NCBI RefSeq assembly: GCF_900520355.1
Contig: NZ_LS999521.1
Span: 3,286,001 to 3,350,000 of the forward strand
DNA length: 64,000 nt
Direction: 5' to 3'
Origin: Acinetobacter calcoaceticus
GTDB lineage: Bacteria; Pseudomonadota; Gammaproteobacteria; Pseudomonadales; Moraxellaceae
The stretch's first letter is position 1, and each line of letters opens with the position of its first letter. Positions 7,211-55,968 of the stretch are shown piece by piece. The translations under genes and the position numbers were made by a program. Under the pieces are notes generated by a model. That model saw nothing but the letters and a program-made list of their open reading frames with translations, ran no database searches and was not told the DNA's origin.

Positions 7211-9517
7211 TTAAACACCTTGGATCATACGTCGCGCACTAATGATTCCAGGTTGCTGCTCTAGACGTGCCAATAAACGAGACAGCTGCGCTAAACCCTT
7301 AACCTCAATTAACAACTTCATATTCGCAATACCATCTGCTTCAGAAATTGTATTAACCTGACGAATATTGATTTGGTCAGAGAAAATCACTTGAGTTAAG
7401 TCTTTAAGCAGACCACGACGATCATATGCTTCCACTACAATCTGAACGCTTTGACCACGTGTTGGCTGCATTTCCCAATCAGCTTCAACAGCACGCTCTG
7501 GTTCTTGCTTAATCATACGCTGATAATCTGAACAAATGACTTTGTGGATACTCACACCACGGTTCAAAGTAATATATCCAGCGATTGATTCGCCATGCAC
7601 GGGCTGGCAGCACTGAGCGATGTGCAACTCTACGTTGTCTAAACCATCAATTAAAATTCCGTGGGCCGATAACGTATGGCTTGCACGCGGATTTAATGCT
7701 GGTTTAAGCACTAGTTCAGGTTCATCCTGATCTAGATGCATTTGGCGGTTCACCTGATTAATCAAGGCATGTAAGCTAATATCACCGCTTACTAGACTCA
7801 CCAAAATGTCATCACCCGTTTTCACGTTAAAGTGTGATGAATAATCATTTAGGTCGATACTTTTTGGGTGAATCGCTAGGCGAGCTAACTCTTTATTGAG
7901 AAGTTCACGGCCGACTTCAAGATTTTTACTACGATCTTGTTGTCTAAACCAATGACGCAACTTGTCACGGGCACGAGAGGTTTTAATATAACCTAAAGAA
8001 TTCACCAACCAATCTCGGTTTGGATCACGATCTTTTTTAGTTAAAATCTCAACCTGCTCGCCAGTTTTTAAAGTATAGGTTAATGGCACATAGCGCTGGT
8101 TAACTCGCGCTGCGTAACACTTATTCCCTACTTCCGTATGCACATGATAAGCAAAATCTAAAACTGTTGAGCCACGTGGCAATTCCTTAATATCACCATC
8201 ACGACTGAAAACATAAATCTTCTCAAAACCTTCAAAATCTTGTAGTTGATCAAAGCCTTCTGTTTCATCTTCGTTTTGATGTACCGTCGTGTCATTGCGC
8301 TCTTGGTAGTGTTCAAGAACGGCCCGCAATGAATGTAAACGATGGTTAAAGGAGTGGTCTGTATTCTTTGAACCTTCTTTATAGTTAAAGTGCGAACATA
8401 CGCCTAATTCTGCTTCGTCGTGCATCTCATGAGTACGAATTTGTACTTCAAGCGACTTATTTTCAGCAATTACAGCGGTATGCAAAGAGCGATAGCCATT
8501 TGCTTTCGGGTTGGTAATATAGTCATCAAACTGGTGAGGAATATGACGCCAGATTTGATGAACAATACCCAAAGAGTGATAACACTCTGGGACACTCTTA
8601 ACCAACACACGTAAGGCACGAATATCATAGAGCTGATCAAAACTCAGGTTTTTGCTTTTCATTTTTCGATAAATCGAATAAATGTGCTTTGCTCGACCTG
8701 TGATTTCTGACTCGATTCCGTAAGACGCTAACTCATTTTTCAAACGATCAATGACGAACTGAATATAATGTTCACGCTCTAAACGTTTTTCATTCAGTAA
8801 TGACGCAATTTCTTTATAACGGTCTGGAGCTAAATAGCGAAAAGCGAGATCTTCAAGTTCCCATTTAAGCTGGGCAATACCAAGTCGATGTGCCAATGGC
8901 GAATAAATAGTAAGAATTTCACGTGCTACGCGTTCCTGACGTTCACGAGAGGAGTTTGCTAGCTCTCGTAAAGAATAGGTACGTTCAGCAAGTTTAATTA
9001 AAACAACACGAACATCTTCGGTGACCGAAATCAGCATTTTATAAATGCCGCTTAAATGTTCTCGTTGATTGTTATTAAAATGGTCTTCTAACCGCTTATT
9101 TTTTTCAATGAGTTCCGATAGTTTACCCATTGCCAAAGCGCCTTTGACAAGGTTATAGACCTGATCTCCAAATTTCTTTTTTACTTCTTCTATATCAGTA
9201 ATTTCTTCACGCACACTACGATAGAGCATGGCTGCCGATAGAGTATCTTCGTCTACATGGAGATGTGCCAAAATATCGGCCATTCCAACGCCAGTAGCGA
9301 AAGTATTGGAACGATGATTAACCGTTGAGTCTAACTCTTTTTGCAGGGTTTCATTCGCAACCTTTTCAAGCTGTTCAAGCTTCGCCCCATCTAATATTTC
9401 ACGCACTCGATCCAACCATGAGGCTAAACCGATTTGCGTTTCGGCGGCATGCTCTACAGTCGTTTCCTCGGACAACTCAGTTAGTTGTTCAGGTAACTGT
9501 TCACGTACTGTGACCAT
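7211..9517 (-). CDS. relA: GTP pyrophosphokinase RelA
   Basis: Ribosome-dependent (p)ppGpp synthetase of the stringent response, 768 residues. Order of parts: pseudo-hydrolase domain (the HD dyad expected near residue 100 in SpoT is absent, reading HVDEDTLSAAMLYRS), synthetase domain (GRAKHIYSIYRKM...YDIRALRV...NPKANGYRSLH), TGS domain about 407-468 (IYVFSRDGDIKELPRGST), zinc-finger-like region (IAQCCQPVHGESI) and C-terminal ACT domain. The lack of HD residues and the position between rlmD and mazG argue for RelA rather than SpoT. The synthetase specificity motif, usually ExDD in RelA, reads QFDD here. GAGGAG precedes the start at ideal distance. Confidence 0.95.
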   Translation of the reverse strand: MVTVREQLPEQLTELSEETTVEHAAETQIGLASWLDRVREILDGAKLEQLEKVANETLQKELDSTVNHRSNTFATGVGMADILAHLHVDEDTLSAAMLYRSVREEITDIEEVKKKFGDQVYNLVKGALAMGKLSELIEKNKRLEDHFNNNQREHLSGIYKMLISVTEDVRVVLIKLAERTYSLRELANSSRERQERVAREILTIYSPLAHRLGIAQLKWELEDLAFRYLAPDRYKEIASLLNEKRLEREHYIQFVIDRLKNELASYGIESEITGRAKHIYSIYRKMKSKNLSFDQLYDIRALRVLVKSVPECYHSLGIVHQIWRHIPHQFDDYITNPKANGYRSLHTAVIAENKSLEVQIRTHEMHDEAELGVCSHFNYKEGSKNTDHSFNHRLHSLRAVLEHYQERNDTTVHQNEDETEGFDQLQDFEGFEKIYVFSRDGDIKELPRGSTVLDFAYHVHTEVGNKCYAARVNQRYVPLTYTLKTGEQVEILTKKDRDPNRDWLVNSLGYIKTSRARDKLRHWFRQQDRSKNLEVGRELLNKELARLAIHPKSIDLNDYSSHFNVKTGDDILVSLVSGDISLHALINQVNRQMHLDQDEPELVLKPALNPRASHTLSAHGILIDGLDNVELHIAQCCQPVHGESIAGYITLNRGVSIHKVICSDYQRMIKQEPERAVEADWEMQPTRGQSVQIVVEAYDRRGLLKDLTQVIFSDQINIRQVNTISEADGIANMKLLIEVKGLAQLSRLLARLEQQPGIISARRMIQGV

Positions 9518-26490: not shown

Positions 26491-26635
26491 AGGCTAAAAA
26501 GTACATGGTAAAAATATCCAGCAAAAAGATAATCACTTTTTAACTTATAAAAGATATCTATTATGTACGTTTAGCAAAAGCTAGATAAACCTTTTTATCG
26601 CATTCATCTAGCAACTGTAAAAAAATTAAACTACT

Positions 26636-27220
26636 TTATAAAATAGGTAAAATGGATGGGACCATATCCTGAATTGTTTTGCCATTACATGTTTCGCCTA
26701 ATGCAGACATTTTCCATGCACCATTGTGACGATAAACTTTAGCAATAATTAATGCTGTATAATTACCTTTTGCTGAAAGATTATATTTTGCAATTTCAAC
26801 ATTGGTTGTAGCGTCAACTACACGGCAAAAAGCATTTTCAACTTTTTCGAAAGTTTGTCCACGGAAACTACTGATTGTAAATACAATTGATTTCACTTGG
26901 CTAGGAACTTGAGTCAGATCCACATGGATTGCCTCATCATCACCCGCGCCATCACCAGTACGATTGTCACCAGAATGTTTAATACTGCCATCACGACTCT
27001 GTAATTGACCGAACCAAATGCTATCTAACGCTTTGTTATTTTCATCAAAAACAATTGCAGAGGCATCGAGATCAATCGAATCACCACCACCACCAAACAT
27101 GCCAAGTAAACCGCCTTTTTTTGCGACATCCCAACCTGCACCAAGAAATATTTTAGTTAAAGATGAACCATCACCCTTTTCTAAAGAAATTTTTTGACCT
27201 TTTACTAAGCTAATGCCCAT
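26636..27220 (-). CDS. terZ: TerD-family protein, TerZ-like
   Basis: 194 residues, one TerD domain. Diagnostic segments are GWDVAKKGGLLGMFGGGGDS with its Gly insertion, IDLDASAIVFDENN, IWFGQLQSRDGSIKHSGDN and the Ca-binding GDGAGDDEAIHVDL, then NAFCRVVD. The Gly-rich insertion and the NAFCRVVD block are shared with TerZ rather than TerD/TerE. TerD proteins bind calcium and take part in tellurite, phage and stress resistance at the cell envelope; the mechanism is unsettled. Last gene of the minus-strand ter operon. Confidence 0.88.
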   Translation of the reverse strand: MGISLVKGQKISLEKGDGSSLTKIFLGAGWDVAKKGGLLGMFGGGGDSIDLDASAIVFDENNKALDSIWFGQLQSRDGSIKHSGDNRTGDGAGDDEAIHVDLTQVPSQVKSIVFTISSFRGQTFEKVENAFCRVVDATTNVEIAKYNLSAKGNYTALIIAKVYRHNGAWKMSALGETCNGKTIQDMVPSILPIL

Positions 27221-27232
27221 TTATAATTTCCT

Positions 27233-27955
27233 TCAGTTTGAATTTGAATGACCACGACCTAAAGCCGTAGCTAACCACTGTAAATAACTCGCACGATTAC
27301 GTGAGCACACAATCACTTTGCCATGTCCACGGAACTTAATCACTAAACCTTCACCACTCGTAAAGCTATTGACGATATTGCCAACAAAACCACCGCCACC
27401 AGAACTCGGAATGCCAATATTATAATTTAATGATGCATCCCAAGCCGCAACATGACCATTATCGATGGTGACTTCACCTTGCTCTGGTGTAATATCCAGT
27501 TCGAGTAAAGTTCCACTGCCAGAAATACACACTTTACCCTGCCCACTGGTTTCCATAACCACAAAACCGCCTGTGCCCCCAAACAATGCACCGCCTATAT
27601 TACTTTGCACTTTTGCTTTGATCATGGTGTGTTCGGTTGCTGCAACAAAAGAACCATCAGATAAAATATACTGTCGTTGACCCACATCAAGGATCTGCAT
27701 ATCACCATCTAAATTCGGTGATAATAGACACTCTCCTGCACCTCTCACGGCTTTAATTTGCTGTTGAAATAAAGACTCTCCAGAGGTAAATTTACGCATA
27801 AAAGCTTGAAAAATTCCGCCACGTAATTTACCGCCAACCTCAAGATTTTGTTCAACCATGACCATCGCATCAGATTCACAATAGATTGCTTCACCTTGCT
27901 GCATACTGACATGTAAAAAAGGTTCTGGGCTACCAACAAGACTAAATTCTGCCAT
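27233..27955 (-). CDS. AIM24-family (TIGR00266-like) protein
   Basis: 240 residues rich in beta strands and Gly: GEAIYCESDAMVMVEQNLEV, GECLLSPNLDGDMQILDV, QSNIGGALFGGTGGFVVMET, SGSGTLLELDI, RGHGKVIVCSRNR. This is the pattern of the AIM24/TIGR00266 trimeric beta-prism family, which is recurrently found in Ter clusters. Its biochemical role is unknown; scaffolding or membrane association is a common guess. It lies 12 bases upstream of terZ in the operon. Confidence 0.85.
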   Translation of the reverse strand: MAEFSLVGSPEPFLHVSMQQGEAIYCESDAMVMVEQNLEVGGKLRGGIFQAFMRKFTSGESLFQQQIKAVRGAGECLLSPNLDGDMQILDVGQRQYILSDGSFVAATEHTMIKAKVQSNIGGALFGGTGGFVVMETSGQGKVCISGSGTLLELDITPEQGEVTIDNGHVAAWDASLNYNIGIPSSGGGGFVGNIVNSFTSGEGLVIKFRGHGKVIVCSRNRASYLQWLATALGRGHSNSN

Positions 27956-27964
27956 TATATTTAC

Positions 27965-29248
27965 CTATGCTCTCACGATATTTTTATTTTTTGCTTCTGC
28001 TAACCATATCGGAAATTCTTGAAGTAAAAAGTCATACAACATTGATTCAGAAATACTTTCAATATTATCTATTTTAAAGAAATTACAATTGTCTACCACG
28101 CTCCCCTCCATGGTATCTAATTTTTCTAACACACCGTAATTTTTGCCACCAATACCTACAAATTGCCAAAATATGGGTTGCAATGATGCCTCTTGTAAAA
28201 TCTTTTTAATTTTTCTAGCTTCAGAAACACCACCATCAGAAATAAAAACAATATAGACCGGTAAATTGGATGGGCTTTCTTTGGTAAAATAATGTAAAAC
28301 CTCTTCAAGAACGGCAGGCTCATTATTATAGCCAGCTCCTGCATTCCATTTTTTATAACCTCCTTGTTCTGAAGCTATATAGTTATTCAAATTATTCAGG
28401 CTTACATCATTTAAACGGAGTGCTTTTTCTGCAAATGCCCAGCACTCAAAGCTGCCATCGTCATCAAAATTGATTGCCAAAGGTATAATGCGATCCATAA
28501 CTTTCTGCACATCACCACATTTATATTGTTGGCTCATTGAACCTGAATAATCCAATATCAACGCCACTCTTGCTTTTACCTCAAGTAATTTATTTTTTTC
28601 TAAACTAATCAGTGATTTTTTAGTGAGATCGAGCAAATGGGGTGCAAATTTTTCCACCTTATCTAAAATAACTTTTTTCTTTAAATCAATTTTAGACGCT
28701 GTAGGGGCAGGAGAAGAATTTTCAGCAACCTCCCCGCCAAAATGTTTCACTAATGCGGTTAATCCACCATTAAAACCTTGTCCGATAGCAGCCATGCGCC
28801 ACAGATCATTTTTAAAGTAAATTTCAGTCAACATGACTGCTTTTTCTTGGCTAAAATTTGATGGATTTAATTGATAATTTGCCAATACTTCGCCTTGCTG
28901 ATTTACAAGAGAAATTTGACCACTTTGAATATTTTGCATCGTTGCTTGATCATTTGCCACAGTTGCACAAATGACAAATCGGGGCGTTTGTGTCGCATTT
29001 ATTTTACTTAAATCAAAAGTAAATAAATTCAAATTTTCTTGCTGAAGATATTGCACTTCACAGTGAGGCGTCTGCGGTTGATTATAAAAAGTCATATAAT
29101 CATCATGGAAAAGCTGATCATTTTGTCCTACACCAAAACTGGATATATCGATATCAAATGCTGCTTTAAATTGCACACGTAAAGTAAATTTTTGATCATT
29201 TTGAATAACTTGATTAAGTGCTATTTTTTGTCCAGAAACTAACTGCAT
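27965..29248 (-). CDS. terF: TerF-like protein: TerD domain fused to von Willebrand A domain
   Basis: 427 residues. The first ~180 form a TerD-like domain (LVSGQKIALNQVIQND...[17 protein letters not shown]). The rest is a vWA domain with an intact MIDAS: DYSGSMSQQ, the Asp-rich INFDDDGSFECWAF, and VYIVFISDGGV. This TerF architecture is taken as a metal-dependent protein-interaction adaptor joining TerD proteins to partners. It stands between terE and the AIM24 gene; the 107 bp upstream may hold a separate promoter. Confidence 0.88.
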   Translation of the reverse strand: MQLVSGQKIALNQVIQNDQKFTLRVQFKAAFDIDISSFGVGQNDQLFHDDYMTFYNQPQTPHCEVQYLQQENLNLFTFDLSKINATQTPRFVICATVANDQATMQNIQSGQISLVNQQGEVLANYQLNPSNFSQEKAVMLTEIYFKNDLWRMAAIGQGFNGGLTALVKHFGGEVAENSSPAPTASKIDLKKKVILDKVEKFAPHLLDLTKKSLISLEKNKLLEVKARVALILDYSGSMSQQYKCGDVQKVMDRIIPLAINFDDDGSFECWAFAEKALRLNDVSLNNLNNYIASEQGGYKKWNAGAGYNNEPAVLEEVLHYFTKESPSNLPVYIVFISDGGVSEARKIKKILQEASLQPIFWQFVGIGGKNYGVLEKLDTMEGSVVDNCNFFKIDNIESISESMLYDFLLQEFPIWLAEAKNKNIVRA

Positions 29249-29355
29249 TTTTATTCTCTAATTTAGTACTTGAAAATAATTCAATATAAAATAGATTTAT
29301 ACCAATTACTTTCAAGTACTAAAAGATGACTCTTTTAGTACTTTAATTGATTCGC

Positions 29356-29934
29356 TTAAACTGCAACACCATAACTAGCAGCTAACGCACCCAGACCACC
29401 ATTAAAGCCTTGACCAACGGCTTTGAATTTCCATTCGCCATTGTGGCGATATAACTCACCAAAAATCATCGCAACTTCAGTGCTACCGTCTTCAGACAAG
29501 TCGAAACGTGCCAACTCTTCTGCATTTGCATCTTGGTTAATCACACGGATATAGGCTTTATCGACCATACCGAAGTTTTGACCATTTTGCTGTCCTTCGT
29601 GGATCGTCACAGCAAATACAATTTTTGCAACTTCTTGAGGAACTTTAGATAGGTCTACAGAAATTGTTTCGTCATCACCCTCGCCATCGCCAGTACGGTT
29701 ATCGCCTTTATGGTTAACCGATCCACATGGTGAAGTTTTTTGATTGAAGAAAATAAATTCACCATCTAAACGAACTTTACCATCCTCACCTGTTAAGAAT
29801 GCGACAGCATCTAGATCGAATGCCTTACCATCAGTTGCACGTGGATTCCAACCTAAACCCAAGTCGACTTTATTCATCGTCGGAGCAGTTTTGGAAAGAT
29901 TGATATTTCCGCCTTTTGATAAATTAATAGCCAT
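29356..29934 (-). CDS. terE: TerD-family protein, TerE-like
   Basis: 192 residues: [79 protein letters not shown], then [14 protein letters not shown]. The DxD and GDGEGDDE acidic loops that bind Ca in TerD are intact. The GEDGKV and [11 protein letters not shown] segments and the C-terminus align better with enterobacterial TerE than TerD. Downstream of the DUF475 membrane protein by 21 bases. Confidence 0.9.
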
Positions 29935-29955
29935 TTTTGTTTCCTTAACTTTCGT

Positions 29956-31026
29956 TTATGAAGATTGTTGCTTTTTACTATATGAAATTGAAGAGATGAC
30001 AGCCCAAACAATGAAGGCAACACCCACTAATCCGGTAATAACCTCTGGAATATGTAATCCTGTGCCGCTCGCCAACATAATCAACGCAAGTGCACCAATT
30101 GCATAATGCGCGCCATGTTCTAAATATACATAAGCATCAAGCGTACCTTTTTCAACCAGGTAAATGGTCATTGAACGGACAAACATCGCACCGATGGCAA
30201 GACCCAGCATTATAATTACCACATCACTGGTAATTGCAAAAGCACCGATTACACCATCGAAACTAAAAGAGGCATCTAATACTTCTAAATATAAGAAACC
30301 ACCAATACCGCCTTTGACAATCGTACCTGTTGCAGTGGCACTATTTGATTTTTCAGATTCATCATCATTGCTACTGCCTTCTAATAGATGGCCAATGACT
30401 TTCACTCCCACATAGACGACAATACCCCAAACACCAGCCATCATCACAACTAAACGTGATGCATCAGGGATGTAGCTTGCTAAAATAAGTAGCACAACCA
30501 ATGAAATGAAAACTGAAATCGCTTGAATATTACCTAAATCTGCTAATCTTGATTCAAGCCAATGAAACCAATGTTCATCTTTTTCATCATCAAACAAGAA
30601 ATTCAGAAATACCAATAATAAGAACATGCCACCAAATGCTGCGATTTCAGCATGATGGGTCATCAGTTTTTCTGAATAAGTTGTGGGGTCATTTAATGCT
30701 AATTTAGCGACTTCAATCATGCTCATATCGGCGGTGACACCGACAATAAGCAACGGGAAAATGAGTCGCATACCAAAAACAGCAACGATAATACCCACGG
30801 TTAAAAACAGGGTTCGCCAAAATTGGTTCCAATGTTTCAGTACAGAGGCATTGACGACTGCATTATCAAAGGAGAGTGATACCTCCATAACCGCTAAAAT
30901 TGCAGTAATAGCCAATACTTTAAACATTGCCATTAAACCGGCTTGGGGGCCATGGGTTAACCCCCAATATGCCGAAATGGCCAAGCAGATAATGCTAAAG
31001 ATGATCGAAAAACGGAAGTGTTTCAT
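29956..31026 (-). CDS. DUF475 / TerC-superfamily integral membrane protein
   Basis: 356 residues with about nine hydrophobic helices. The two family motifs are present: EVSLSFDNAVVNASVL near residue 50 and EVLDASFSFDGVIGAFAIT near 255. These acidic-helix motifs are those of the TerC/Alx fold, proposed to move metal ions, Mn in better-studied relatives. The protein takes the place that TerC holds in plasmid ter operons. Between terD and terE. No classical TerC or TerB is present in the island. Confidence 0.87.
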   Translation of the reverse strand: MKHFRFSIIFSIICLAISAYWGLTHGPQAGLMAMFKVLAITAILAVMEVSLSFDNAVVNASVLKHWNQFWRTLFLTVGIIVAVFGMRLIFPLLIVGVTADMSMIEVAKLALNDPTTYSEKLMTHHAEIAAFGGMFLLLVFLNFLFDDEKDEHWFHWLESRLADLGNIQAISVFISLVVLLILASYIPDASRLVVMMAGVWGIVVYVGVKVIGHLLEGSSNDDESEKSNSATATGTIVKGGIGGFLYLEVLDASFSFDGVIGAFAITSDVVIIMLGLAIGAMFVRSMTIYLVEKGTLDAYVYLEHGAHYAIGALALIMLASGTGLHIPEVITGLVGVAFIVWAVISSISYSKKQQSS

Positions 31027-31046
31027 TTTTCACCTAAGAATAGAGT

Positions 31047-31622
31047 TTAAATACTAATGCCATATTGACGGCACATAGCACTTAAACCACCGTTATAACC
31101 TTGACCTACAGCTCTGAACTTCCATTCACCGTTATGACGATATAACTCGCCAAAAATCATCGCTGTTTCTGTTGAATAATCTTCATTTAAGTCAAAACGT
31201 ACAATTTCAACATTCGTTTGATCATTAACGACGCGAATAAATGCATTTTGCACTTGTCCAAAATTTTGACCACGGCTTTCTGCATCATGAATGGTAACGG
31301 TAATGGCAATTTTTTGCACTTCAGCAGGCACTTTCGCTAAATCAATCTTAACTGCCTCATCATCACCATCACCCGCGCCCGTACGGTTATCACCGGTATG
31401 TTCTACAGAACCTTCTGGAGAGCGCGTTTGGTTATAAAAAATAAAATCTGTTTCACCACGAACTTTGTCATTTGCAGCCAATAAAAATGCCGAGGCATCC
31501 AAGTCAAAATCTACGCCATCAGTGGCCCGAGCATCCCAACCTAAGCCAATCAAAACTTGGTTAAGTGATGGATCTGTTTTGCTTAAAGATAGATTTCCAC
31601 CTTTATTTAATGAAATCGCCAT
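31047..31622 (-). CDS. terD: Tellurium resistance protein TerD
   Basis: 191 residues, close in pattern to enterobacterial Ter[80 protein letters not shown]. The calcium-binding acidic residues are intact. Transcribed after terA (44-bp gap) and before DUF475. Part of a paralogous set (terA, terD, terE, terF, terZ) sharing one domain within 6.3 kb. Confidence 0.93.
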
Positions 31623-31665
31623 AATTTTCCCTCTTCTTTATTACATGTAAATTAAATGGATAGTG

Positions 31666-32880
<1,215 letters not shown>

Positions 32881-33166
32881 ACGACCCTCTTACAATATTG
32901 TAATATTTCATTTAATAAATTAAGTATATGAATATAAAAAAATATCTTAAAAATTATTTTATTTGCCCTATATTGTTTTAACATAGGCAGATTCAAGCGG
33001 CAAGTGCAACAATATAAAAACCCGTTCCACATCACTGAGCGTATACCAACCCAATGACTTTCTAGGATAATTATTCATTTATTACATGAAAAATTTTATA
33101 TATTTCATGTAGAATGGAAGCATAAATTTATAATTGTTATTAAAGAAAATTGAGAACAACTCTACT

Positions 33167-34183
33167 GTGAAATCGCACTACAATATATGGATTGCTGAAA
33201 GCTACTCCTGTCAAAACGACATTATTCAATTATTAAAACGCTCAAATTTATCTGCCCATCTGACGATTTTTTGTTCTCATAGTAAACAACGTCCAGAATT
33301 AAAGCTCTGCGCAGATTATTTTTTTCAACAACCCCCCGTTGAATACAGTGCAAATTGGCTTTTAGAACAATGTAAAGTGCATTCCATTCAACTACTGTTT
33401 TGTGGAAAACATAGTCAATTTATTGAAAAATTTCGTGAAGAATTTGCTCGGCATGATATTCAACTAGTGACAGGTGCCACTGGTGTAGCGCAGCATGAAA
33501 ACATGAACAATAAATTCCTATTTGGAGAAATTTGTGAAGCTTTAAACTTACCGAATATTCCTGCTGCGAAAGTGGATCATGTTGTTGGATTAAAGCAAGC
33601 AATTGCTGATTATCAAAAAAAATATTCACATATTTGTGCAAAACCCGTGTACGGCGTATATGGTTCTGGTTTTGTTCAACTGCGAGATGAAGTTACATAT
33701 TTTAAGCAATTTCAACTCAATACGCAGTGTAATACGCAACAATTTATAGAAGCCTATGCTCAATTAGATCAACCTATTGAGTATTTGATTATGCCGTTTT
33801 TAACGGGGCAAGAATGTTCCGTCGATATTGCCTGTAGCCATGGGCGAATTTTAGCCTTAGTGACCCGAGTCAAATTTAAATTTTATCAGCAATGCTATAT
33901 CGAGCATCCTTGTCATGAAATCTGCAAAATTCTGGTGCCACATTTCCAATGTGATGGATTGATCAATATTCAATTTAAACAAGACGATCTGGGGGTATGG
34001 CATATTTTAGAAATTAACCCGCGTCCCGCAGGTGGTTTTGCCTATACACAACATACTGGAATTAATTTAATTGCAGAACTGATGGCTGAAAAATTGCAAT
34101 TGACACTGCAACATACTGACTTCGTTCCCGTCGTTCAAGTTTTACCCATTACACAAAGTTTCAAAATGGATTATACACATTGA
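33167..34183 (+). CDS. ATP-grasp domain protein of Ter biosynthetic module
   Basis: 338 residues from a GTG at 33167, beginning VKSHYNIWIAES; a TTG at 33134 is the alternative and neither has a strong Shine-Dalgarno. ATP-grasp features: NNKFLFGEICEAL, the phosphate-binding region KPVYGVYGSGFVQL, MPFLTGQECSVDIA and the metal site FEI-type ILEINPRPAGGFAY. Predicted to form an amide or acyl-phosphate bond. This is the first of five overlapping genes matching the nucleoside-like metabolite module described computationally for Ter systems by Anantharaman, Iyer and Aravind. Confidence 0.82.
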   Translation: MKSHYNIWIAESYSCQNDIIQLLKRSNLSAHLTIFCSHSKQRPELKLCADYFFQQPPVEYSANWLLEQCKVHSIQLLFCGKHSQFIEKFREEFARHDIQLVTGATGVAQHENMNNKFLFGEICEALNLPNIPAAKVDHVVGLKQAIADYQKKYSHICAKPVYGVYGSGFVQLRDEVTYFKQFQLNTQCNTQQFIEAYAQLDQPIEYLIMPFLTGQECSVDIACSHGRILALVTRVKFKFYQQCYIEHPCHEICKILVPHFQCDGLINIQFKQDDLGVWHILEINPRPAGGFAYTQHTGINLIAELMAEKLQLTLQHTDFVPVVQVLPITQSFKMDYTH

Positions 34184-35304
34184 TAAAACATATTGATTTA
34201 AGTCGTGGTCGTATTAGTGTGACTGTGAATCAGCATCATCCACAATGGAAATTGGATGATCTGCTCAGTTTTGCAGAAAGAATTAACCCTAAACGTGCAT
34301 TCTTATTTGTTTCCAAAATTCTTGGAAAACATATCCCCGTTGCACCATCCGCGATGCAAAGAAGTTATCAAGATCTTGCTGCGATCATTCCCAAAGATCT
34401 GCCCTATCCCATTAGTGTGATTGGTATGGCAGAGACCGCCGTAGGTTTAGGGGCAGGTGTTTATCGTGAACTGAAACAAGATTTTGGACAAAATGCCATC
34501 TTTTTAACCACCACGCGACATCCTGTTGAAACCTTACCGACCTTAGGCTTGTTTTTAGAAGAACATAGTCATGCACAAGATCAGTTTATTTTATCCAGTC
34601 ATGATCCACTTAAGCATCAGCATGTGATTGCATCGAAAACGCTTATTTTAATTGATGATGAAATTTCAACAGGAAAGACCTTTAGAAATTTAATCTTGAG
34701 CCTGAAAAAATCGGGTTTACAACAGGTTGAGCGGATTATTTTGGTGACCTTGGTCAATTGGGCGGAACAACATTTAGTCACTGATGACTTAGGGATTCCA
34801 GTTGAAGTGGTGTCATTATTACATGGCCATTGGCAATGGCAGCAGAACCAGCAACCTATAGACATTGACATGCCCGATGTCAGCTCAACCCAGCAGCAAG
34901 CTCAAAAAATTATTGCCCCTCATGATTGGGGACGCGAACCGACCTTTCTAAATTGTAGCGCTTGGAAAAATATTCAACCACCTTTGCCCCATGAAAAAAT
35001 CTTGGTCTTAGGTTCGGGTGAATTTAGTTGGATTCCATTTCTAATTGCCGAGCAATTAGAGCAGCAAGGGGCTGAAGTTTATTACAGCTCAACCACACGC
35101 TCTCCCATCAAGCAAGGTCATGCCGTTGAAAGTATTTGTGCATTTAAAGATAATTATGGACTAAATATTAATAACTATGCCTATAACGTTAAACATCAAC
35201 AGTTTGATCGAGTTTTATTGGTCATTGAAACAGCTCAAGATAGCGTCGATCCTGTCCTGTTTGAACAAATAAAAAATCTGGAAATTATTAGTTATGAATC
35301 CTAA
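34180..35304 (+). CDS. Phosphoribosyltransferase with C-terminal TRSP domain
   Basis: 374 residues. The PRPP-binding loop TLILIDDEISTGKT lies near 150, preceded by VIGMAETAVGLGAGVYREL and the TTTRHPV flexible-loop region. The C-terminal ~140 residues (ILVLGSGEFSWIPFLIAEQL, STTRSPI) fit the TRSP domain that accompanies these enzymes. It starts at a TTG overlapping the previous stop (TTGA), so translation is coupled. Predicted to attach or exchange a base-like group on phosphoribose. The final product is unknown. Confidence 0.83.
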   Translation: MIKHIDLSRGRISVTVNQHHPQWKLDDLLSFAERINPKRAFLFVSKILGKHIPVAPSAMQRSYQDLAAIIPKDLPYPISVIGMAETAVGLGAGVYRELKQDFGQNAIFLTTTRHPVETLPTLGLFLEEHSHAQDQFILSSHDPLKHQHVIASKTLILIDDEISTGKTFRNLILSLKKSGLQQVERIILVTLVNWAEQHLVTDDLGIPVEVVSLLHGHWQWQQNQQPIDIDMPDVSSTQQQAQKIIAPHDWGREPTFLNCSAWKNIQPPLPHEKILVLGSGEFSWIPFLIAEQLEQQGAEVYYSSTTRSPIKQGHAVESICAFKDNYGLNINNYAYNVKHQQFDRVLLVIETAQDSVDPVLFEQIKNLEIISYES

Positions 35305-36073
35305 GCCGTTAATTTTTGTTGACTTAGATGACACGCTGTTTCAAACAAATCGTAAAAGTCCTCCGACACCATTACATAAAATTGCAACGCTAGATCAATT
35401 TGGTGAGCCTCTGTCTTATATGCTTCCCAAACAGCAAATTTTTGTGAATTGGTTGTTGGCATCTGCTGATGTTATTCCTGTGACTGCACGCTCAGTTGCA
35501 GGCTTGCAGCGGGTACATCTTCCTTTTCTGCATGGTGCGGTATGTTCACATGGTGGAACTATTTTAGCGGCAGATCAACAGGTTGATCAGGAATGGCTTG
35601 AAATCCAGCATAAGGCGGCAGCTGAACTGGATGAGTTACTGACTAAGTTACCAGCGCTATTGCTCGATTATGCCAAACCATTTGGTTCAATCCGCACTTG
35701 GACGATGCAAGAAAATGGTGGGAAAATTTATACTGTTGCCAAGCAAAATGATCCTGTGCCTTTATTTCTGCACCAAATGATTGAACACTTACCTGCTGAA
35801 GTACTTGAACACTGCTATGTCCATATCAATGGCAATAATTTAGCCATTCTTCCCAAATTTGTGTCTAAACAAAAAGCAGTTGAGTTTTTTATCAATAAAT
35901 ATGACCCAAATCGTGAACGTGCCATTTTAGGTTGGGGCGACAGTTTGTCTGATGCAGGCTTTTTAGGCTGCTGTGATTGGTTTGGTATGCCTAAAAATAG
36001 TCAGTTAGATAAATTTTTAGTACAAAATCTAGCACAAGATCATCAGGCAAAAGGATATTTAGGACATGTATAA
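35294..36073 (+). CDS. HAD-superfamily hydrolase of Ter biosynthetic module
   Basis: 259 residues. HAD motif I is FVDLDDTLFQTN (DxD nucleophile), motif II falls around VIPVTARSV, motif III is a Lys near FVSKQKAV, and motif IV is GWGDSLSDAGF. The cap is of the C2/Cof type. Likely removes phosphate from an intermediate made by the phosphoribosyltransferase. The start overlaps the previous gene by 11 bases. Confidence 0.85.
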   Translation: MNPKPLIFVDLDDTLFQTNRKSPPTPLHKIATLDQFGEPLSYMLPKQQIFVNWLLASADVIPVTARSVAGLQRVHLPFLHGAVCSHGGTILAADQQVDQEWLEIQHKAAAELDELLTKLPALLLDYAKPFGSIRTWTMQENGGKIYTVAKQNDPVPLFLHQMIEHLPAEVLEHCYVHINGNNLAILPKFVSKQKAVEFFINKYDPNRERAILGWGDSLSDAGFLGCCDWFGMPKNSQLDKFLVQNLAQDHQAKGYLGHV

Positions 36074-37226
36074 AAACCATGCGTTAGCATCTAGTCTTCA
36101 AACACTGGGGTTCCATGGCTCTTATCGACCTGAAGATGTGACCTTCTTGCTCAATATTGATGAAATAGACCCCACACCCGTAGCTGAAAAAGAGTATCTG
36201 ATTCAATCTGGGAAAAAACACTATTCACAAATGATTAGTGTTGAACATCCACCTTCAGATGAACAAATGCGACATTTTGAATACGCTTTTGAGCAAGGTG
36301 CTGAACGTCTGGCAAGTGATGTGCAGAAGATTGGTAACTCACTGATGGTTCGATTTCCCAAGCAACCGATTATTTTAGTTAGCTTGGTTCGCGCTGGCAT
36401 CCCTTTAGGTGTACTCCTTAAACACTATATTCACAAGCATCAGGATTGTGAGCATTACGGGATTAGTATTATCCGTGATCGCGGTATTGATTTTGCAGCA
36501 TTGCAGGCGATTATCGAACAACACGGCGCGGAAAATATTGTTTTTGTCGATGGCTGGACGGGTAAGGGTGCAATTTGTCGAGAATTGACCCAAAATTTGG
36601 CAGATTATCCCGCATTATTTGATGCAGGGTGGGAGGTTCCTCGCCTTGTGACCTTAGCCGATTTAGGTGGTTATTCGTGGTTAAGTGCCAGTTGTGAAGA
36701 TTGGCTGATTCCGTTTGGTATGCTAGGTTCCGTGATCTCAGGCTTAACCTCACGGACTATTTTAAAAGATACGATTGATTTCGATCTGGCAAAGAAAAAT
36801 TGCTACGATCCGAAGAATTGGCATAGCTGTTTAATCTATCAACATCTGGCTCAGTATGATATTTCAGTCGAGTTTATCGACAAAATATTAAATCTTATTC
36901 AACAGCATCCGCATAGCGATTTGGCAAATTGGAATAATCACATTCGACTCAAACAACAAAAAATTTGTTTAAATACCATTGACTGGATCTTTGAGACCTA
37001 TACAGTTAAAAATATTAATCATATTAAGCCTAGTATTGCAGAAGCCACGCGTGCCGTATTAAGACGCGTTCCTGAAAAAATATTAATCCGTGATCCATCC
37101 AATCCACATGTACAATTACTGCTGCATTTTGCCAAAGAACGGAATATTGCCGTAGATATTTTAGGTGCCAAGTTAGGCCCATATCATGCAGTGACTCTGA
37201 TAAAAAAAGTCGAGAAAAATAAATGA
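36066..37226 (+). CDS. StiP-domain protein with C-terminal PELOTA-like domain
   Basis: 386 residues. The N-terminal part (SYRPEDVTFLL) and the core LVSLVRAGIPLGVLLKHYI, SIIRDRGID and IVFVDGWTGKGAI give a phosphoribosyltransferase-like fold with a PRPP-type loop. Pfam calls this StiP, a cysteine-protease name from a single precedent that I doubt applies. The C-terminal ~80 residues (EKILIRDPSNPHVQLLLHFA...VDILGAKLGPYHAVTLIKKV) fit the PELOTA RNA-binding domain. Overlaps the HAD gene by eight bases. Probably a second PRPP-dependent step. Confidence 0.8.
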   Translation: MYKNHALASSLQTLGFHGSYRPEDVTFLLNIDEIDPTPVAEKEYLIQSGKKHYSQMISVEHPPSDEQMRHFEYAFEQGAERLASDVQKIGNSLMVRFPKQPIILVSLVRAGIPLGVLLKHYIHKHQDCEHYGISIIRDRGIDFAALQAIIEQHGAENIVFVDGWTGKGAICRELTQNLADYPALFDAGWEVPRLVTLADLGGYSWLSASCEDWLIPFGMLGSVISGLTSRTILKDTIDFDLAKKNCYDPKNWHSCLIYQHLAQYDISVEFIDKILNLIQQHPHSDLANWNNHIRLKQQKICLNTIDWIFETYTVKNINHIKPSIAEATRAVLRRVPEKILIRDPSNPHVQLLLHFAKERNIAVDILGAKLGPYHAVTLIKKVEKNK

Positions 37227-38161
37227 AACAACTGCAACATGCGATTGAGCTGGGTGCAACTATGTACATTCCTGCAACCCATGAGCAATTATGGGAAGTG
37301 ACTGAAGGCATTAAATTTCCAATACTAAAATCGATTGCGGTCTGTTTAGAAGATGCCGTGTTGGAAAAAGACGTGCAAACAGCCATGGTCAATTTAAAGC
37401 ATTTATTACAAAAACGTTTAGAGCAGCCAAACTTAAAGGCGCCTGCGATATTTATTCGCCCTAGAAATATTGAAATGGCGAAACATATTGTCGATTGGGA
37501 CTTAAATCACACCTATAGTGGCATGATTTTACCCAAGTTTACGCTGCACGATTTAAAGCAGTGGATGGACATTTTGCCACCCAATATCAACCTGATGCCG
37601 ACGCTTGAAACCAAAGAAATTTTTGATATGGGCCATAATATGGAGCTTAATCAAGCACTCAAATATGACTTTCATAAAACCCTATGTCTAAGAATTGGCG
37701 GTAATGACCTGTTGTCCTGTTTACATTTACGTCGCCCTAAAAACAGTACGATTTACCAAACTCCAGTGGGCATGTTAATTGCACAATTGGCAGGCTTATT
37801 TATTCCAGCGGGCTTTCAACTCAGTTCACCTGTATGTGAACATATTGACCGCACGCAATTGCTGATGGATGAATTATGCCAAGATATGAATAACGGCATT
37901 TATACCAAAACGGCCATTCATCCCTCACAAATTGAATATATTCATCGCGCCTTGCAAATCAATAGCGAAGAATTTCATGAAGCACAGCAAATTTTATCGC
38001 AAGATGCGAAAAGTGTATTTAAAAGCCACGGTTCCATGTTAGAACCAGCGACACATCGCAATTGGGCAGAGATGATTTTATTACGCTATAAAACTTTTGG
38101 TTTATCTAAACCTCAGGCCTCAAGCCAAGAAAAATTCATGCTCAATACATTCTCACTTTAA
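37223..38161 (+). CDS. HpcH/HpaI aldolase / citrate-lyase-beta (CitE-like) protein
   Basis: 312 residues. CitE-like segments are SIAVCLEDAVLEKDVQTAM, AIFIRPRN, GMILPKFTLHD, INLMPTLETKEIFDMG (metal-ligand Glu), LRIGGNDLLSCL and KTAIHPSQIEYIHRAL. Predicted C-C bond lyase or ligase. ATGA overlap with the previous gene makes five cotranslated genes. The next 526 bp hold no full gene: only a hairpin terminator and a 19-codon remnant. Confidence 0.85.
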   Translation: MKQLQHAIELGATMYIPATHEQLWEVTEGIKFPILKSIAVCLEDAVLEKDVQTAMVNLKHLLQKRLEQPNLKAPAIFIRPRNIEMAKHIVDWDLNHTYSGMILPKFTLHDLKQWMDILPPNINLMPTLETKEIFDMGHNMELNQALKYDFHKTLCLRIGGNDLLSCLHLRRPKNSTIYQTPVGMLIAQLAGLFIPAGFQLSSPVCEHIDRTQLLMDELCQDMNNGIYTKTAIHPSQIEYIHRALQINSEEFHEAQQILSQDAKSVFKSHGSMLEPATHRNWAEMILLRYKTFGLSKPQASSQEKFMLNTFSL

Positions 38162-38470
38162 CTATTTTAATACCAAATTTTATTGCACAAACATGAAGAA
38201 ATTGAATTTCTCCTATACTAGCCAAATTTAAGATATAACTCGGGTATAGGGTCAGTCTAATTTAGTAAACTTACTGAATATAGCAATTCGAGCGTGTACA
38301 TTACCTGACTTAATTCTAAAAAATTTTTGCTATTAACTTGCCTACTGAAATTGGGTAAAAACTATTTTTCGATTTTCTCAAGGAGAGGACTCAAAAATCC
38401 AAATACTTGAAACTCTAAGAAATAGAGCTATTATTCTCCCAGCTAATTTACTATTAAAAATTAAATCAGT

Positions 38471-38687: not shown

Positions 38688-38975
38688 ATGAATCCAGTTC
38701 TTAAGATATCAGACTATGTTTTCATGCAGTTTAGAACATCAATACCAACATTAAAGAAAGTGGGTGAAATTTACTATCCTCACCTAAGTAAAGCTAAATT
38801 GCTTGAAAAGGCTAGAAAAATGGAGTTCCCCTTTGTATGTTATAAACTTGATGAAAGCCAAAAATTACCATATTTAGTTGATATTATTGACTTAGCATTT
38901 ATCCTTAAACAACGTTATCAAGCGATAAGAGTTGAAGCCTTTATGAAAGGAACTCTAGCAAATTATCAAGGCTAA
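38688..38975 (+). CDS. PrtN-family pyocin-activator-like protein
   Basis: 95 residues: MNPVLKISDYVFMQFRTSIP, then LSKAKLLEKARKMEFPFVCY with a helix-turn-helix-like region, and LVDIIDLAFILKQRYQ. This agrees with the PrtN-like family that accompanies tyrosine integrases in Acinetobacter prophages, where it may act as a regulator or directionality factor. A good AAAGGAAAA lies upstream of the ATG. Its end overlaps the end of the integrase pseudogene on the other strand. Confidence 0.75.
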   Translation: MNPVLKISDYVFMQFRTSIPTLKKVGEIYYPHLSKAKLLEKARKMEFPFVCYKLDESQKLPYLVDIIDLAFILKQRYQAIRVEAFMKGTLANYQG

Positions 38976-39891
38976 GCGTCTCCTTTCTTCGCTTAACAGA
39001 TACATATCGCTCCAAACTCCCCCATGAATCATGCAAACTTACTTTCTGAATTTCAGGTATCGTAAAACTTTGTTCTACAAGTCTCCTACAGCCTTCATGT
39101 CTTAAATCATGAAAATGTAAATCTTCAATTCCCAGTATTTTACATGCTTCACGAAACTCTTTTCCTATGCTTTTTAGGTTCAAAGGCAATAAGAGCTATT
39201 TATCATACCCTAATCGCAGCATACAACTTCGCACTTCATTATCTAATAAATATGCTCAATTATTGTTTTTACGTGGCTCCAAAACATAAAAAGACTTGTG
39301 ATTACCTTTAGAACTACTCAGATTTTTCAAATCATAGACTTTCCATGAAGAGTTGTAAGAATCATAATCTTGCCGCCATAAACGTGTTAACTCTGCTTCT
39401 TCCATGCCCCACATAACAGATGCATGAGATAGAACACCTCTAATATGTAAAAGCTCATACTGCTGTGTACTTGCAATTGGTTCTAAGCCAAGATTCGGCA
39501 CACCTCTCCGTCTTAGAGCAACATGCTCAGTCAAATGTATTGAATGTATTTTTGTGATAATATTGCGCGCGATTGGCAACTTCTTAATTAAGAGTAGAGC
39601 ACATAGCGTTTCGTTGTTCCGTATTCGCTCCCAACTTCATCCAAGTATTTATCTATGGCATCTGACAAAGCTAGATCAATCAGTTGTTCTTTGCCAAGTA
39701 AAATTTCTGGATTTTCTTGGATCTCAACTTCTCTTTTTTAAGACAGTTTTCTGCCACTTTTTTGAATGAAATGTTTTGCTTTCAGAGTAAGCTGGATAAC
39801 CTTTTTTGTTGATCCGGATAGTAGCTCGGTAACTAACACTTCCATCTGCACTTTTTCTGGCAGTAATTGACCCATAAACTATTTTTTCCAT
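38941..39891 (-). pseudogene. Tyrosine recombinase (integrase) pseudogene
   Basis: From an ATG at 39891 the reading begins MEKIVYGSITARKSADGSVS, a typical arm-binding N-terminus. It hits a stop after TVLKKRS near 39724; the sequence continues in another frame (REVEIQENPEILLGKEQL) and shifts again near KRY (about 39605). The third piece runs PIARNIIT...GMEEAELTRLWR to a TGA at 39256, then a TAG before the last piece. The last piece still shows the catalytic HDLRHEG box, LHDSW and the tyrosine in LERYVSV. At least two frameshifts and two in-frame stops make it non-functional unless the sequence is wrong. Confidence 0.85.
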
Positions 39892-54534: not shown

Positions 54535-54583
54535 TGAACTGCACCCCATAAGTTAGACTCTTTAAACTTATAAGGTGTGTCCT

Positions 54584-55093
54584 ATGCCAGTTCCAAAGCA
54601 TTCAAAAGAGTTAAAACTAAAAGTAATTCAGGCTTATTTAGATGGGAGTAAAGGCTATAAAATTCTTTCCAAAGAGTTTAATGTAGATCTCCAAACCATC
54701 CGGTTATGGATTGAAAACTATAAAGCACATGGTACTGATGGGCTTAATGTTAAAATTAAAAAGACTTATTATTCTCCAGAATTTAAAATCAATGCGATAC
54801 AAATGCTTCTTGATAAGATACCCGTAAGAGAAGTAAGAAGACGATTAAATCTGAGCGGGACGTCAATTTTAAGAAGATGGTTAGCTCAGTATCATAAAGA
54901 AGGGATTGCTGGTTTTAATACTAAACGGACTTATACCAATATGACTAGGCAAGATAAAATCAAAGTAGTTAAGCCAATCAGAGATGATAAAGACAAGTCT
55001 CAACAAGAACTCATTGATGAGGTTACAGCTTTGCGCGCAGAGGTCGCTTTCTTAAAAAAGCTAAAAGCCTTAAAACTGAAGCAGCGTACTTAA
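54584..55093 (+). CDS. IS3-family transposase OrfA
   Basis: 169 residues from the ATG at 54584 (AAGG eight bases upstream). Two HTH segments, LDGSKGYKILSKEFNVDLQT and KIPVREVRRRLNLSGTSILR, then a C-terminal leucine-zipper-like helix ELIDEVTALRAEVAFLKKL. DNA-end recognition and regulation. Its last codons cover the slippery AAAAAAG at 55054-55060. Confidence 0.9.
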   Translation: MPVPKHSKELKLKVIQAYLDGSKGYKILSKEFNVDLQTIRLWIENYKAHGTDGLNVKIKKTYYSPEFKINAIQMLLDKIPVREVRRRLNLSGTSILRRWLAQYHKEGIAGFNTKRTYTNMTRQDKIKVVKPIRDDKDKSQQELIDEVTALRAEVAFLKKLKALKLKQRT

Positions 55094-55968
55094 GTTCAAT
55101 TTCTACCGCAGACAGTGTTCAGGTTGTTTCAGAATTAAGGCATATCTATCCATTGAAACTATTACTCGGTATCGCGAAGATAGCCCGTAGTACTTATTTC
55201 TACCACATGAAAGCTCTACGCTCCAATGATAAATATACTGAGCTAAAACAAAATATTAAGTCGATATATCACAAGCACAAAGGATGTTACGGCTATCGTA
55301 GAATTACTCTTGCTTTGAAAAGTGCAGGAATAATGATTAACCATAAATGCGTATATCGCCTCATGAAAACTATGGGACTCAAATCAAGGATCAGAGCACT
55401 AAAATATCGCTCATATAAAAGTGGTTGTGTCGGGATGGTGGCTGATAACATTTTACAACGGCAATTTAAAGCAAATCGGCCAAATCAGAAATGGGCAACT
55501 GATGTAACGGAATTTAATGTGAATGGTGAAAAACTTTACCTATCCCCAATTATAGATTTATTTAATGGGGAAATTATTACGTTCCGAATCCAACGCAAAC
55601 TCAATTATGAGTTAGTAAAAGAGATGCTCATTCATGCTTTGGCTAAACTTAAGCGACATGAAAAACCAATTCTCCATTCCGATCAAGGATGGCAATATCA
55701 AATGGCCCATTACCAGCAGCAATTAAAGCAACATGGTTTAATTCAGAGTATGTCTCGTAAGGGAAATTGTTTGGATAATGCTGTAATAGAAAGCTTCTTT
55801 GGAATATTAAAATCGGAATGCTTTCATGGTGAAAAATTTCAATCAATTGATGAATTAGAGAAAACTGTAAAAGAGTACATTCATTATTATAATCATGAGA
55901 GAATCAAGGTGAAGCTACAAGGTTTATCCCCTGTACAATATAGAAATCAGTTTTTAAAAACTGCTTAA
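55057..55968 (+). CDS. IS3-family transposase OrfB (DDE), read by -1 frameshift
   Basis: The open frame reaches back through the slippery AAAAAAG (55054-55060) and reads KAKSLKTEAAYLSSISTADS into the catalytic domain, so an OrfAB fusion by -1 frameshifting is likely. Independent starts are a TTG at 55153 or later ATGs. HTH_21 segment YGYRRITLALKSAG. rve domain with D in NQKWATDVTEF, D in PIIDLFNGEI and E in NAVIESFFGILKSE: the DDE triad is complete. Confidence 0.9.
   Translation, partial: KAKSLKTEAAYLSSISTADSVQVVSELRHIYPLKLLLGIAKIARSTYFYHMKALRSNDKYTELKQNIKSIYHKHKGCYGYRRITLALKSAGIMINHKCVYRLMKTMGLKSRIRALKYRSYKSGCVGMVADNILQRQFKANRPNQKWATDVTEFNVNGEKLYLSPIIDLFNGEIITFRIQRKLNYELVKEMLIHALAKLKRHEKPILHSDQGWQYQMAHYQQQLKQHGLIQSMSRKGNCLDNAVIESFFGILKSECFHGEKFQSIDELEKTVKEYIHYYNHERIKVKLQGLSPVQYRNQFLKTA

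What the first reader, a model, noticed from the sequence alone, without database searches (positions are those of the whole stretch)
26636..38161. Complete two-operon Ter system: TerD-family sensors plus a predicted nucleoside-like metabolite pathway
Five TerD-domain proteins, an AIM24-like protein and a DUF475 TerC-like channel face, across one divergent promoter region, five tightly overlapping enzyme genes (ATP-grasp, PRTase-TRSP, HAD, StiP-PELOTA, CitE-like). Anantharaman, Iyer and Aravind proposed from genome analysis that such sets make an unknown nucleoside-like metabolite linked to metal or phage stress. To my knowledge the product and mechanism remain undetermined. This copy lacks TerB and classical TerC, so it may be a minimal, self-sufficient chromosomal form. 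It could be a defence island.
Basis: partly seen in the sequence, partly recalled or inferred. Interest (0 to 1): 0.85.

Follow-up and report, generated by a model that had tools for sequence, protein, structure and literature searches.

The report
Mobile Ter stress cassette, Acinetobacter form
This is a known kind of bacterial stress gene cluster whose chemical product is still unknown; here it travels as a compact unit, has exchanged its usual membrane parts, and two of its enzymes seem to carry misleading names, which makes the unknown product easier to hunt.

Summary
In detail: 12 genes at 26636-38161, seven on the minus strand and five overlapping enzyme genes on the plus strand, confirmed by Pfam. 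It is the known Ter system; the two-operon layout is described in Klebsiella (PMC8115787, passages). New here: (1) In Moraxellaceae loci DUF475 replaces TerB and TerC: TerC 0 of 30, TerB 0 of 30, DUF475 27 of 30 (about 23 distinct loci); in 70 other loci 65, 64 and 0. (2) 'Cysteine protease StiP' has a phosphoribosyltransferase fold and no invariant cysteine in 31 sequences. (3) A HAD enzyme of this pathway is already crystallised as 'trehalose phosphatase' (PDB 6D3V; 99.6% to a plasmid Ter-cluster gene); 15 of 20 carrier genomes have no OtsA or OtsB match over cut-off, so trehalose-6-phosphate is unlikely to be its true substrate, though this window's genome is one of the 5 that do. (4) The block is mobile: 94.6% DNA identity to another species whose two tested core genes are 76-78% identical. 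Phage defence, a dusA island and self-sufficiency are not shown. The product remains unknown.

The parts
26636..27220 (-). TerD-family protein (called TerD4 here)
   Evidence: Pfam TerD 187.1 bits
27233..27955 (-). AIM24 / TIGR00266 family protein
   Evidence: Pfam AIM24 185.3 bits, TIGR00266 over cut-off
27965..29248 (-). TerF-like: TerD domain plus vWA-TerF domain
   Evidence: Pfam vWA-TerF-like 254.5 bits, TerD 99.7 bits
29356..29934 (-). TerD-family protein (called TerD3 here)
   Evidence: Pfam TerD 275.7 bits
29956..31026 (-). DUF475 membrane protein that also passes the TerC family cut-off; found in Moraxellaceae loci where TerB and TerC are absent
   Evidence: Pfam DUF475 373.3 bits and TerC 53.3 bits; census; tree
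31047..31622 (-). TerD-family protein (called TerD2 here)
   Evidence: Pfam TerD 298.3 bits
31666..32880 (-). TerA-like protein (name recalled): N-terminal TerD domain, Pro-Thr linker, C-terminal part
   Evidence: Pfam TerD 120.2 bits, residues 25-168
32287..32342 (-). 6-base tandem repeat, 9.3 copies, in the Pro-Thr linker of the TerA-like protein
   Evidence: Tandem Repeats Finder
32881..33166 (.). divergent region between the two operons
   Evidence: sequence; alignment of 16 rows, the window twice; no operator identified
33167..34183 (+). ATP-grasp ligase (ATPgrasp_Ter), GTG start
   Evidence: Pfam ATPgrasp_Ter 99.2 bits; start conserved
34180..35304 (+). PRTase_2-TRSP phosphoribosyltransferase
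   Evidence: Pfam PRTase_2 197.7 bits, TRSP 86.7 bits
35294..36073 (+). HAD phosphatase, homologue of PDB 6D3V and 6CJ0 'trehalose phosphatase'
   Evidence: phmmer E 6.6e-60; D10, D12, T64, K192, D216, D220 invariant in 28 rows
36066..37226 (+). StiP-PELOTA; the StiP part has a PRTase fold
37223..38161 (+). CitE-like C-C bond lyase
   Evidence: Pfam C-C_Bond_Lyase 292.6 bits; conserved acidic and Arg residues
26558..38168 (.). extent of the block shared with genome G011
   Evidence: blastn, 94.6% over 11,685 columns with L035 and no match outside the block

Best explanation
A mobile two-operon Ter cassette. Plus-strand operon: two PRPP-using enzymes (PRTase_2-TRSP and StiP), an ATP-grasp ligase, a CitE-like lyase and a HAD phosphatase make a small phosphoribosylated compound and remove its phosphate, giving a nucleoside-like product. 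Minus-strand operon: TerD-type proteins, a TerF vWA protein and AIM24 assemble at the membrane with DUF475, which does the work that TerC (with TerB) does elsewhere, and protect against metal, metalloid or envelope stress. The product tunes or is sensed by that complex. Shown here: gene content, conservation of likely catalytic residues, a predicted PRTase fold for StiP, the exchange of TerB-TerC for DUF475 across loci, and mobility. Inferred: the chemistry, its order, the role of DUF475 as TerC, and the link of product to complex.
For: Families. Enzymes kept together: in the 80 best GTDB loci, PRTase-TRSP and HAD are in 80 and the lyase in 78 (with a length condition PRTase is in 79); ATP-grasp in 64. 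HAD: the 6D3V protein is 99.6% identical to a phosphatase between a PRTase and StiP on a plasmid. StiP fold; its profile matches PRTase_2 and UPRT about as well as these match each other, and three unrelated controls score much lower. Exchange. Literature: terZ-F suffices for tellurite resistance in E. coli MG1655 (PMC8115787, passages); TerZCD or TerACD suffices, i.e. no TerB (PMC12054061, a passage citing its ref. 43).
Against: No product, substrate or phenotype is known for this strain. Tellurite resistance works without the enzyme operon in E. coli, so the two operons may be less linked than drawn. Genome G069 lacks DUF475 in its block, so it is dispensable there or covered by the core copy. 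In the 17-kb ME3 phage stretch no ATP-grasp or lyase match was found, and 16 of 80 GTDB loci show no ATP-grasp (some are short contigs), so those steps may not be essential. StiP's PRPP-like loop looks, by eye, about two residues shorter than the usual motif, so catalysis is not assured. The hhalign probabilities themselves are low, 6-8%.
Confidence: 0.5

Rival explanations
1. Two loosely coupled functions: the minus operon is a stand-alone metal and metalloid tolerance set, and the plus operon makes an unrelated small molecule; they travel together because both help under similar stress.
For: terZ-F alone gives tellurite resistance to E. coli MG1655 (PMC8115787, passages). Orientation differs among the 20 Acinetobacter loci: four are codirectional and one convergent, so a shared divergent region is not needed.
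Against: The two sets are adjacent in all 20 Acinetobacter loci as far as the contigs reach, and TerD-type genes are within 10 kb of StiP in 78 of 80 wider loci; phage ME3 keeps parts of both.
Confidence: 0.25
2. An anti-phage or anti-colicin defence: the enzymes make an alarm molecule sensed by TerD proteins, which close the membrane to entry.
For: Jumbo-phage authors propose such a role, also for phages against superinfecting phages (PMC7824862, passage). In one Klebsiella strain terC loss lowered growth with 4 of 8 phages (PMC12054061, passage). The cassette is mobile.
Against: No catalogued defence protein in the block or 8 neighbours apart from two weak PRTase hits. The terC effect concerns TerC, not the enzymes, and the same mutant is reported to be metal-sensitive. 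Phage carriage fits defence by the phage as well as other roles.
Confidence: 0.13
3. StiP is a cysteine protease and the plus operon works through proteolysis.
For: Pfam name and NCBI product names.
Against: No cysteine is invariant in 31 aligned sequences (best: C255 in 28 of 31). Of 50 listed PDB matches 45 titles name a PRTase or PyrR; the other five titles do not say.
Confidence: 0.02
4. The HAD enzyme is a trehalose-6-phosphate phosphatase and the pathway feeds trehalose stress protection.
For: PDB name 'trehalose phosphatase'; published work on a P. aeruginosa extrachromosomal TPP (PMC6838324, passages), whose named residues Cys85 and Cys231 agree with the Ter-cluster enzymes L186 and L047. 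The window's own genome has OtsA.
Against: OtsA and OtsB families are over cut-off in the same 5 of 20 carrier genomes only (one more genome has a sub-threshold OtsA-type hit); the window's genome already has its own OtsB. No match to Pfam PF02358 for the window's HAD.
Confidence: 0.03

Closest known systems
ter locus with biosynthetic cluster, Klebsiella and plasmid type
   Same: Two operons on opposite strands in Klebsiella (PMC8115787, passages); the same five enzymes in enterobacterial loci.
   Different: Here TerB and TerC are absent, and DUF475 and AIM24 sit in the operon; identity to enterobacterial loci is about 30% (ATP-grasp) to 71% (TerD).
Ter set of Acinetobacter phage vB_AbaM_ME3
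   Same: DUF475, TerD, TerF-type vWA, PRTase-TRSP, HAD, StiP; described in PMC7824862 (passage).
   Different: No ATP-grasp or lyase match in the 17-kb stretch; DUF475 57% and StiP 35% identical to the window's.
P. aeruginosa plasmid Ter clusters (NZ_CP083368.1, CP109686.1)
   Same: ATP-grasp, PRTase, HAD, StiP, lyase in the same order.
   Different: Enzyme and TerD-TerB-TerC genes run in one direction, with other genes between (a trypsin-like gene, an extra HAD; two IS1182 transposases in CP109686.1); StiP 48% identical.
PDB 6D3V and 6CJ0 'trehalose phosphatase'
   Same: Full-length homologue of the window's HAD, E 6.6e-60; the crystallised protein is nearly identical to a Ter-cluster enzyme.
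   Different: Filed under another function; the close P. aeruginosa homologue L047 is 44% identical to the window's enzyme.

Membership tests
Ter system with nucleoside-like biosynthetic cluster (components as listed in PMC7824862) | TerD-domain proteins | tested here: met
   Five proteins over the Pfam cut-off
Ter system with nucleoside-like biosynthetic cluster (components as listed in PMC7824862) | PRTase and HAD biosynthetic enzymes next to them | tested here: met
   PRTase-HAD-StiP-lyase order in 20 of 20 Acinetobacter loci
Ter system with nucleoside-like biosynthetic cluster (components as listed in PMC7824862) | TerC-type membrane protein | tested here: met
   DUF475 protein passes the TerC family cut-off, 53.3 over 27.8 bits
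Ter system with nucleoside-like biosynthetic cluster (components as listed in PMC7824862) | makes a nucleoside-like product | not testable with these tools
   needs metabolomics or enzyme assays
classical terZABCDE operon | TerB | tested here: not met
   0 hits in the whole genome; so it is not filed under this type
classical terZABCDE operon | TerC proper in the operon | tested here: not met
   no TerC besides DUF475 at the locus
type I phosphoribosyltransferase (StiP part) | PRTase fold | tested here: met
type I phosphoribosyltransferase (StiP part) | PRPP-binding loop | tested here: inconclusive
   D162, G163, W164, G166, K167, G168 in 31 of 31 and T165 in 30, but the loop looks shorter than in PRTase_2
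cysteine protease (StiP as named) | invariant catalytic cysteine | tested here: not met
   none in 31 sequences
trehalose-6-phosphate phosphatase (OtsB) | OtsB family (PF02358) match | tested here: not met
   only Hydrolase_3 and S6PP at E 0.001 or better
trehalose-6-phosphate phosphatase (OtsB) | host makes trehalose-6-phosphate | tested here: inconclusive
   OtsA family over its cut-off in 5 of 20 carriers, the window's own genome among the 5
anti-phage defence system | match to catalogued defence proteins | tested here: inconclusive
   two weak PRTase_III-A hits, E 8e-06 and 2e-05, to one of 20 proteins
dusA-targeted genomic island | integrase next to dusA and a repeated attachment site | tested here: inconclusive
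   broken integrase and excisionase-like gene upstream of dusA; no exact repeat of 16 bases or more

The most novel reading that the evidence does not exclude
StiP-PELOTA is an RNA-directed phosphoribosyltransferase: its PRTase half, joined to a PELOTA half (an RNA-binding domain by name) with invariant charged residues K321, E326, R329, R333 and R334, places a ribosyl or nucleoside-like group made by its partners on RNA, so that the 'metabolite' is really an RNA mark that protects the translation machinery under metal stress or attack.
Probability: 0.12. Interest if true: 0.88.

Novelty: new variant of a known kind. Interest (0 to 1): 0.5.

Why it matters
StiP-type Ter clusters are on at least 2568 plasmid records, yet what the enzymes make is not known in any passage seen. 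Two doubtful labels have hidden useful facts: an enzyme called a protease looks like a second phosphoribosyltransferase, and another already has a crystal structure under the name trehalose phosphatase. With two likely PRPP enzymes, a solved phosphatase pocket and a compact cassette without TerB and TerC, the product can be sought by substrate screening and metabolomics. The natural exchange of TerB-TerC for DUF475 also gives a clean test of what TerC does.

Tried and rejected
Rejected: StiP as protease. HAD as physiological trehalose-6-phosphatase (the window's own genome does have OtsA, so the argument rests on the other carriers). DUF475 captured from this genome's own core gene (tree: 18 core copies form one clade, 100/100, with the 22 cluster-type rows outside it; two more rows that I had labelled core by assumption, from genomes without StiP, fall with the cluster type; the phage ME3 and L180 rows have very long branches and their place is unsure).

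Led nowhere: search for an operator in the divergent region (only short AT-rich stretches recur); attachment repeat at dusA; PHROGs (no hit for the five enzymes); DNA search of E. coli genomes with StiP (no match; the protein search of plasmids does list 439 Escherichia records). The TRSP domain fold was not predicted: every attempt for alignment A3 was answered 'busy'. The Foldseek 'pdb' search likewise; only the VIA second look was obtained. Not held: Anantharaman 2012 and Cross 2018; what I say of them is recalled or comes from passages and reference lists of citing papers. Searches behind 'no passage seen names the product' and for the HAD or StiP links: in an open-licence library only.

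Counting notes. DUF475 is missing in L036 and its twin L054, whose contig ends first, and truly in L042. AIM24 is unmatched in five Acinetobacter stretches that end at or before the gene; two of their twins with longer flanks (L058, L059) have it. Rows given to the aligner: 26 of 37 non-redundant HAD rows, 27 of 30 lyase rows and 19 of 46 ATP-grasp rows (lists), plus the window (and L047 for HAD); for StiP and PRTase_2 all 30 and 25 non-redundant rows. One search gave lower TerC and TerB counts (51 and 39 of 70) because overlapping frames hid genes; one search replaces it.
Full report
Observation. The window lies in a 3.93 Mb single-contig genome, completeness 100. Its genus is Acinetobacter: genome G013 of the same genus has the contig of A. 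kyonggiensis ANC 5109 (same length). The 12 genes are present as described and Pfam confirms each family. The HAD is the weakest family match (24.8 bits) but has a strong PDB homologue.

Known system. StiP, a marker of the enzyme operon, matches 2568 of 72,556 plasmid records, all below 60% identity to the window's, and 3 phage records, two of them of phage ME3. In the 80 GTDB loci with the best StiP matches (of 559 confirmed), PRTase-TRSP and HAD are in 80 and the lyase in 78. [quoted passage not shown] So the finding is a member of a known kind.

The Acinetobacter form. StiP is in 20 of 99 sampled Acinetobacter genomes. Of these 20 loci, 13 have the full 12-gene divergent block, the window included; L042 lacks only DUF475; L036 is cut by its contig end; four are codirectional and one is convergent. 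TerB is found in 1 of 99 genomes, one without StiP. With several queries, TerC and TerB are each in 0 of 30 Moraxellaceae loci and in 65 and 64 of 70 others; DUF475 is in 27 of 30 and 0 of 70 (23 of the 30 are distinct). All 99 genomes have a DUF475 gene, but in a tree the 22 cluster-type rows lie outside a clade of 18 core copies. A paper states, citing other work, that TerZCD or TerACD suffices for tellurium resistance in E. coli (PMC12054061, passage), so a set without TerB is plausible if DUF475 replaces TerC. That replacement is inference.

A third module. A protein kinase and a PP2C phosphatase (Pfam on one example each), with vWA proteins that I call TerY from memory, flank 13 of 20 Acinetobacter loci. 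The kinase is absent from the window's genome; the same search found it in G062 (source of the query) and G013 and not in G011, G069, G046 or G085. The window is one of 7 of 20 loci without this module in the stretch fetched; one of the seven, L031, starts at a contig end.

Mobility. DNA similarity between the window and three loci is limited to the block: 26558-38168 at 94.6% (L035, G011), 26576-38151 at 90.5% (L037, G013), 26628-38161 at 85.1% (L039, G085). A core gene at 7211-9517 is 78, 79 and 78% identical in the same genomes; acnA is 76% in G011, while in G013 and G085 only short weak matches to acnA were found. This speaks for transfer of the block between species, recent in the case of G011. 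Against G069 (L042) the neighbourhood up to dusA and beyond is also shared, at 66-84%, which fits common descent at this site.

dusA. The window and L042 have a close dusA gene in the stretch fetched, and L045 a 26% match. In L042 about 570 bases separate the matched lyase and dusA stretches; in the window about 1870, holding an excisionase-like PrtN gene and a broken integrase. The integrase remnant may be a separate arrival.

HAD. PDB 6D3V and 6CJ0, called trehalose phosphatase, match the window's enzyme at E 6.6e-60 and 7.6e-60. The 6D3V chain (251 residues given) is 99.6% identical to a gene on P. aeruginosa plasmid CP109686.1 that lies between PRTase and StiP in a Ter cluster. A paper on trehalose phosphatase inhibitors names Cys85 and Cys231 as specific to the P. 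aeruginosa enzyme (PMC6838324, passages); this plasmid enzyme has cysteines at 85 and 231 only, the one of L047 at 85, 231 and 239. That activity on trehalose-6-phosphate was measured in detail is recalled from Cross 2018, which is not held, as is the source organism of 6D3V. OtsB and OtsA families are over cut-off in the same 5 of 20 carrier genomes, so most carriers appear unable to make that sugar phosphate by this route. The window's own genome is one of the 5 and also has its own OtsB. The physiological substrate is more likely a phosphate made by the cluster.

Other enzymes. Invariant: E43, D44, R79, R81, E129, D162 in 28 lyase rows; D10, D12, T64, K192, D216, D220 in 28 HAD rows; E227, E293, N295, R297 in 20 ATP-grasp rows. 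That such residues are catalytic is recalled from the families. They suggest working enzymes.

Phage-borne copies. ME3 carries DUF475, TerD, a TerF-type vWA, PRTase-TRSP, HAD and StiP, as published (PMC7824862, passage). The viral collection gave three loci: ME3 again, L130 with a TerC-containing set, and L131. L131 has lyase, PRTase, StiP, a weakly matched HAD and ATP-grasp with a macro-domain protein and an ADP-ribosylglycohydrolase, which hints at ribose chemistry but is a single case; the ME3 neighbour annotated as Appr-1-p processing had no Pfam match.

Verdict. Ordinary as a system, but a distinct Moraxellaceae variant, and two corrected enzyme identities make the old question of the product more testable. 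Interest 0.5.

Noticed in passing
window 38688-39579: Excisionase-like PrtN gene and an integrase broken into pieces just upstream of dusA; the homologous place in genome G069 has no room for them.
   Followed up: partly
window 32287-32342: Perfect 6-base tandem repeat, 9.3 copies, in the Pro-Thr linker of the TerA-like protein; copy changes would keep the frame.
   Followed up: no
L131 4061-14363: Viral-metagenome contig with the Ter enzymes beside a macro-domain protein and an ADP-ribosylglycohydrolase.
   Followed up: partly
L042 (genome G069): Ter block with DUF475 missing between two TerD genes; a core DUF475 gene is present elsewhere in that genome.
   Followed up: partly
L180 (G020) and L181 (G052): DUF475 copies in genomes without StiP that fall with the Ter-type lineage, so Ter-like loci without the enzyme operon may exist; L180 has a long branch.
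   Followed up: no
L186 5691-7064 and 13420-14793: Two IS1182-family transposase genes lie within the plasmid Ter cluster that encodes the 6D3V-like enzyme.
   Followed up: no
window 54575-55968: Two adjacent frames that look like an IS3-type transposase pair (judged from the translation only).
   Followed up: no
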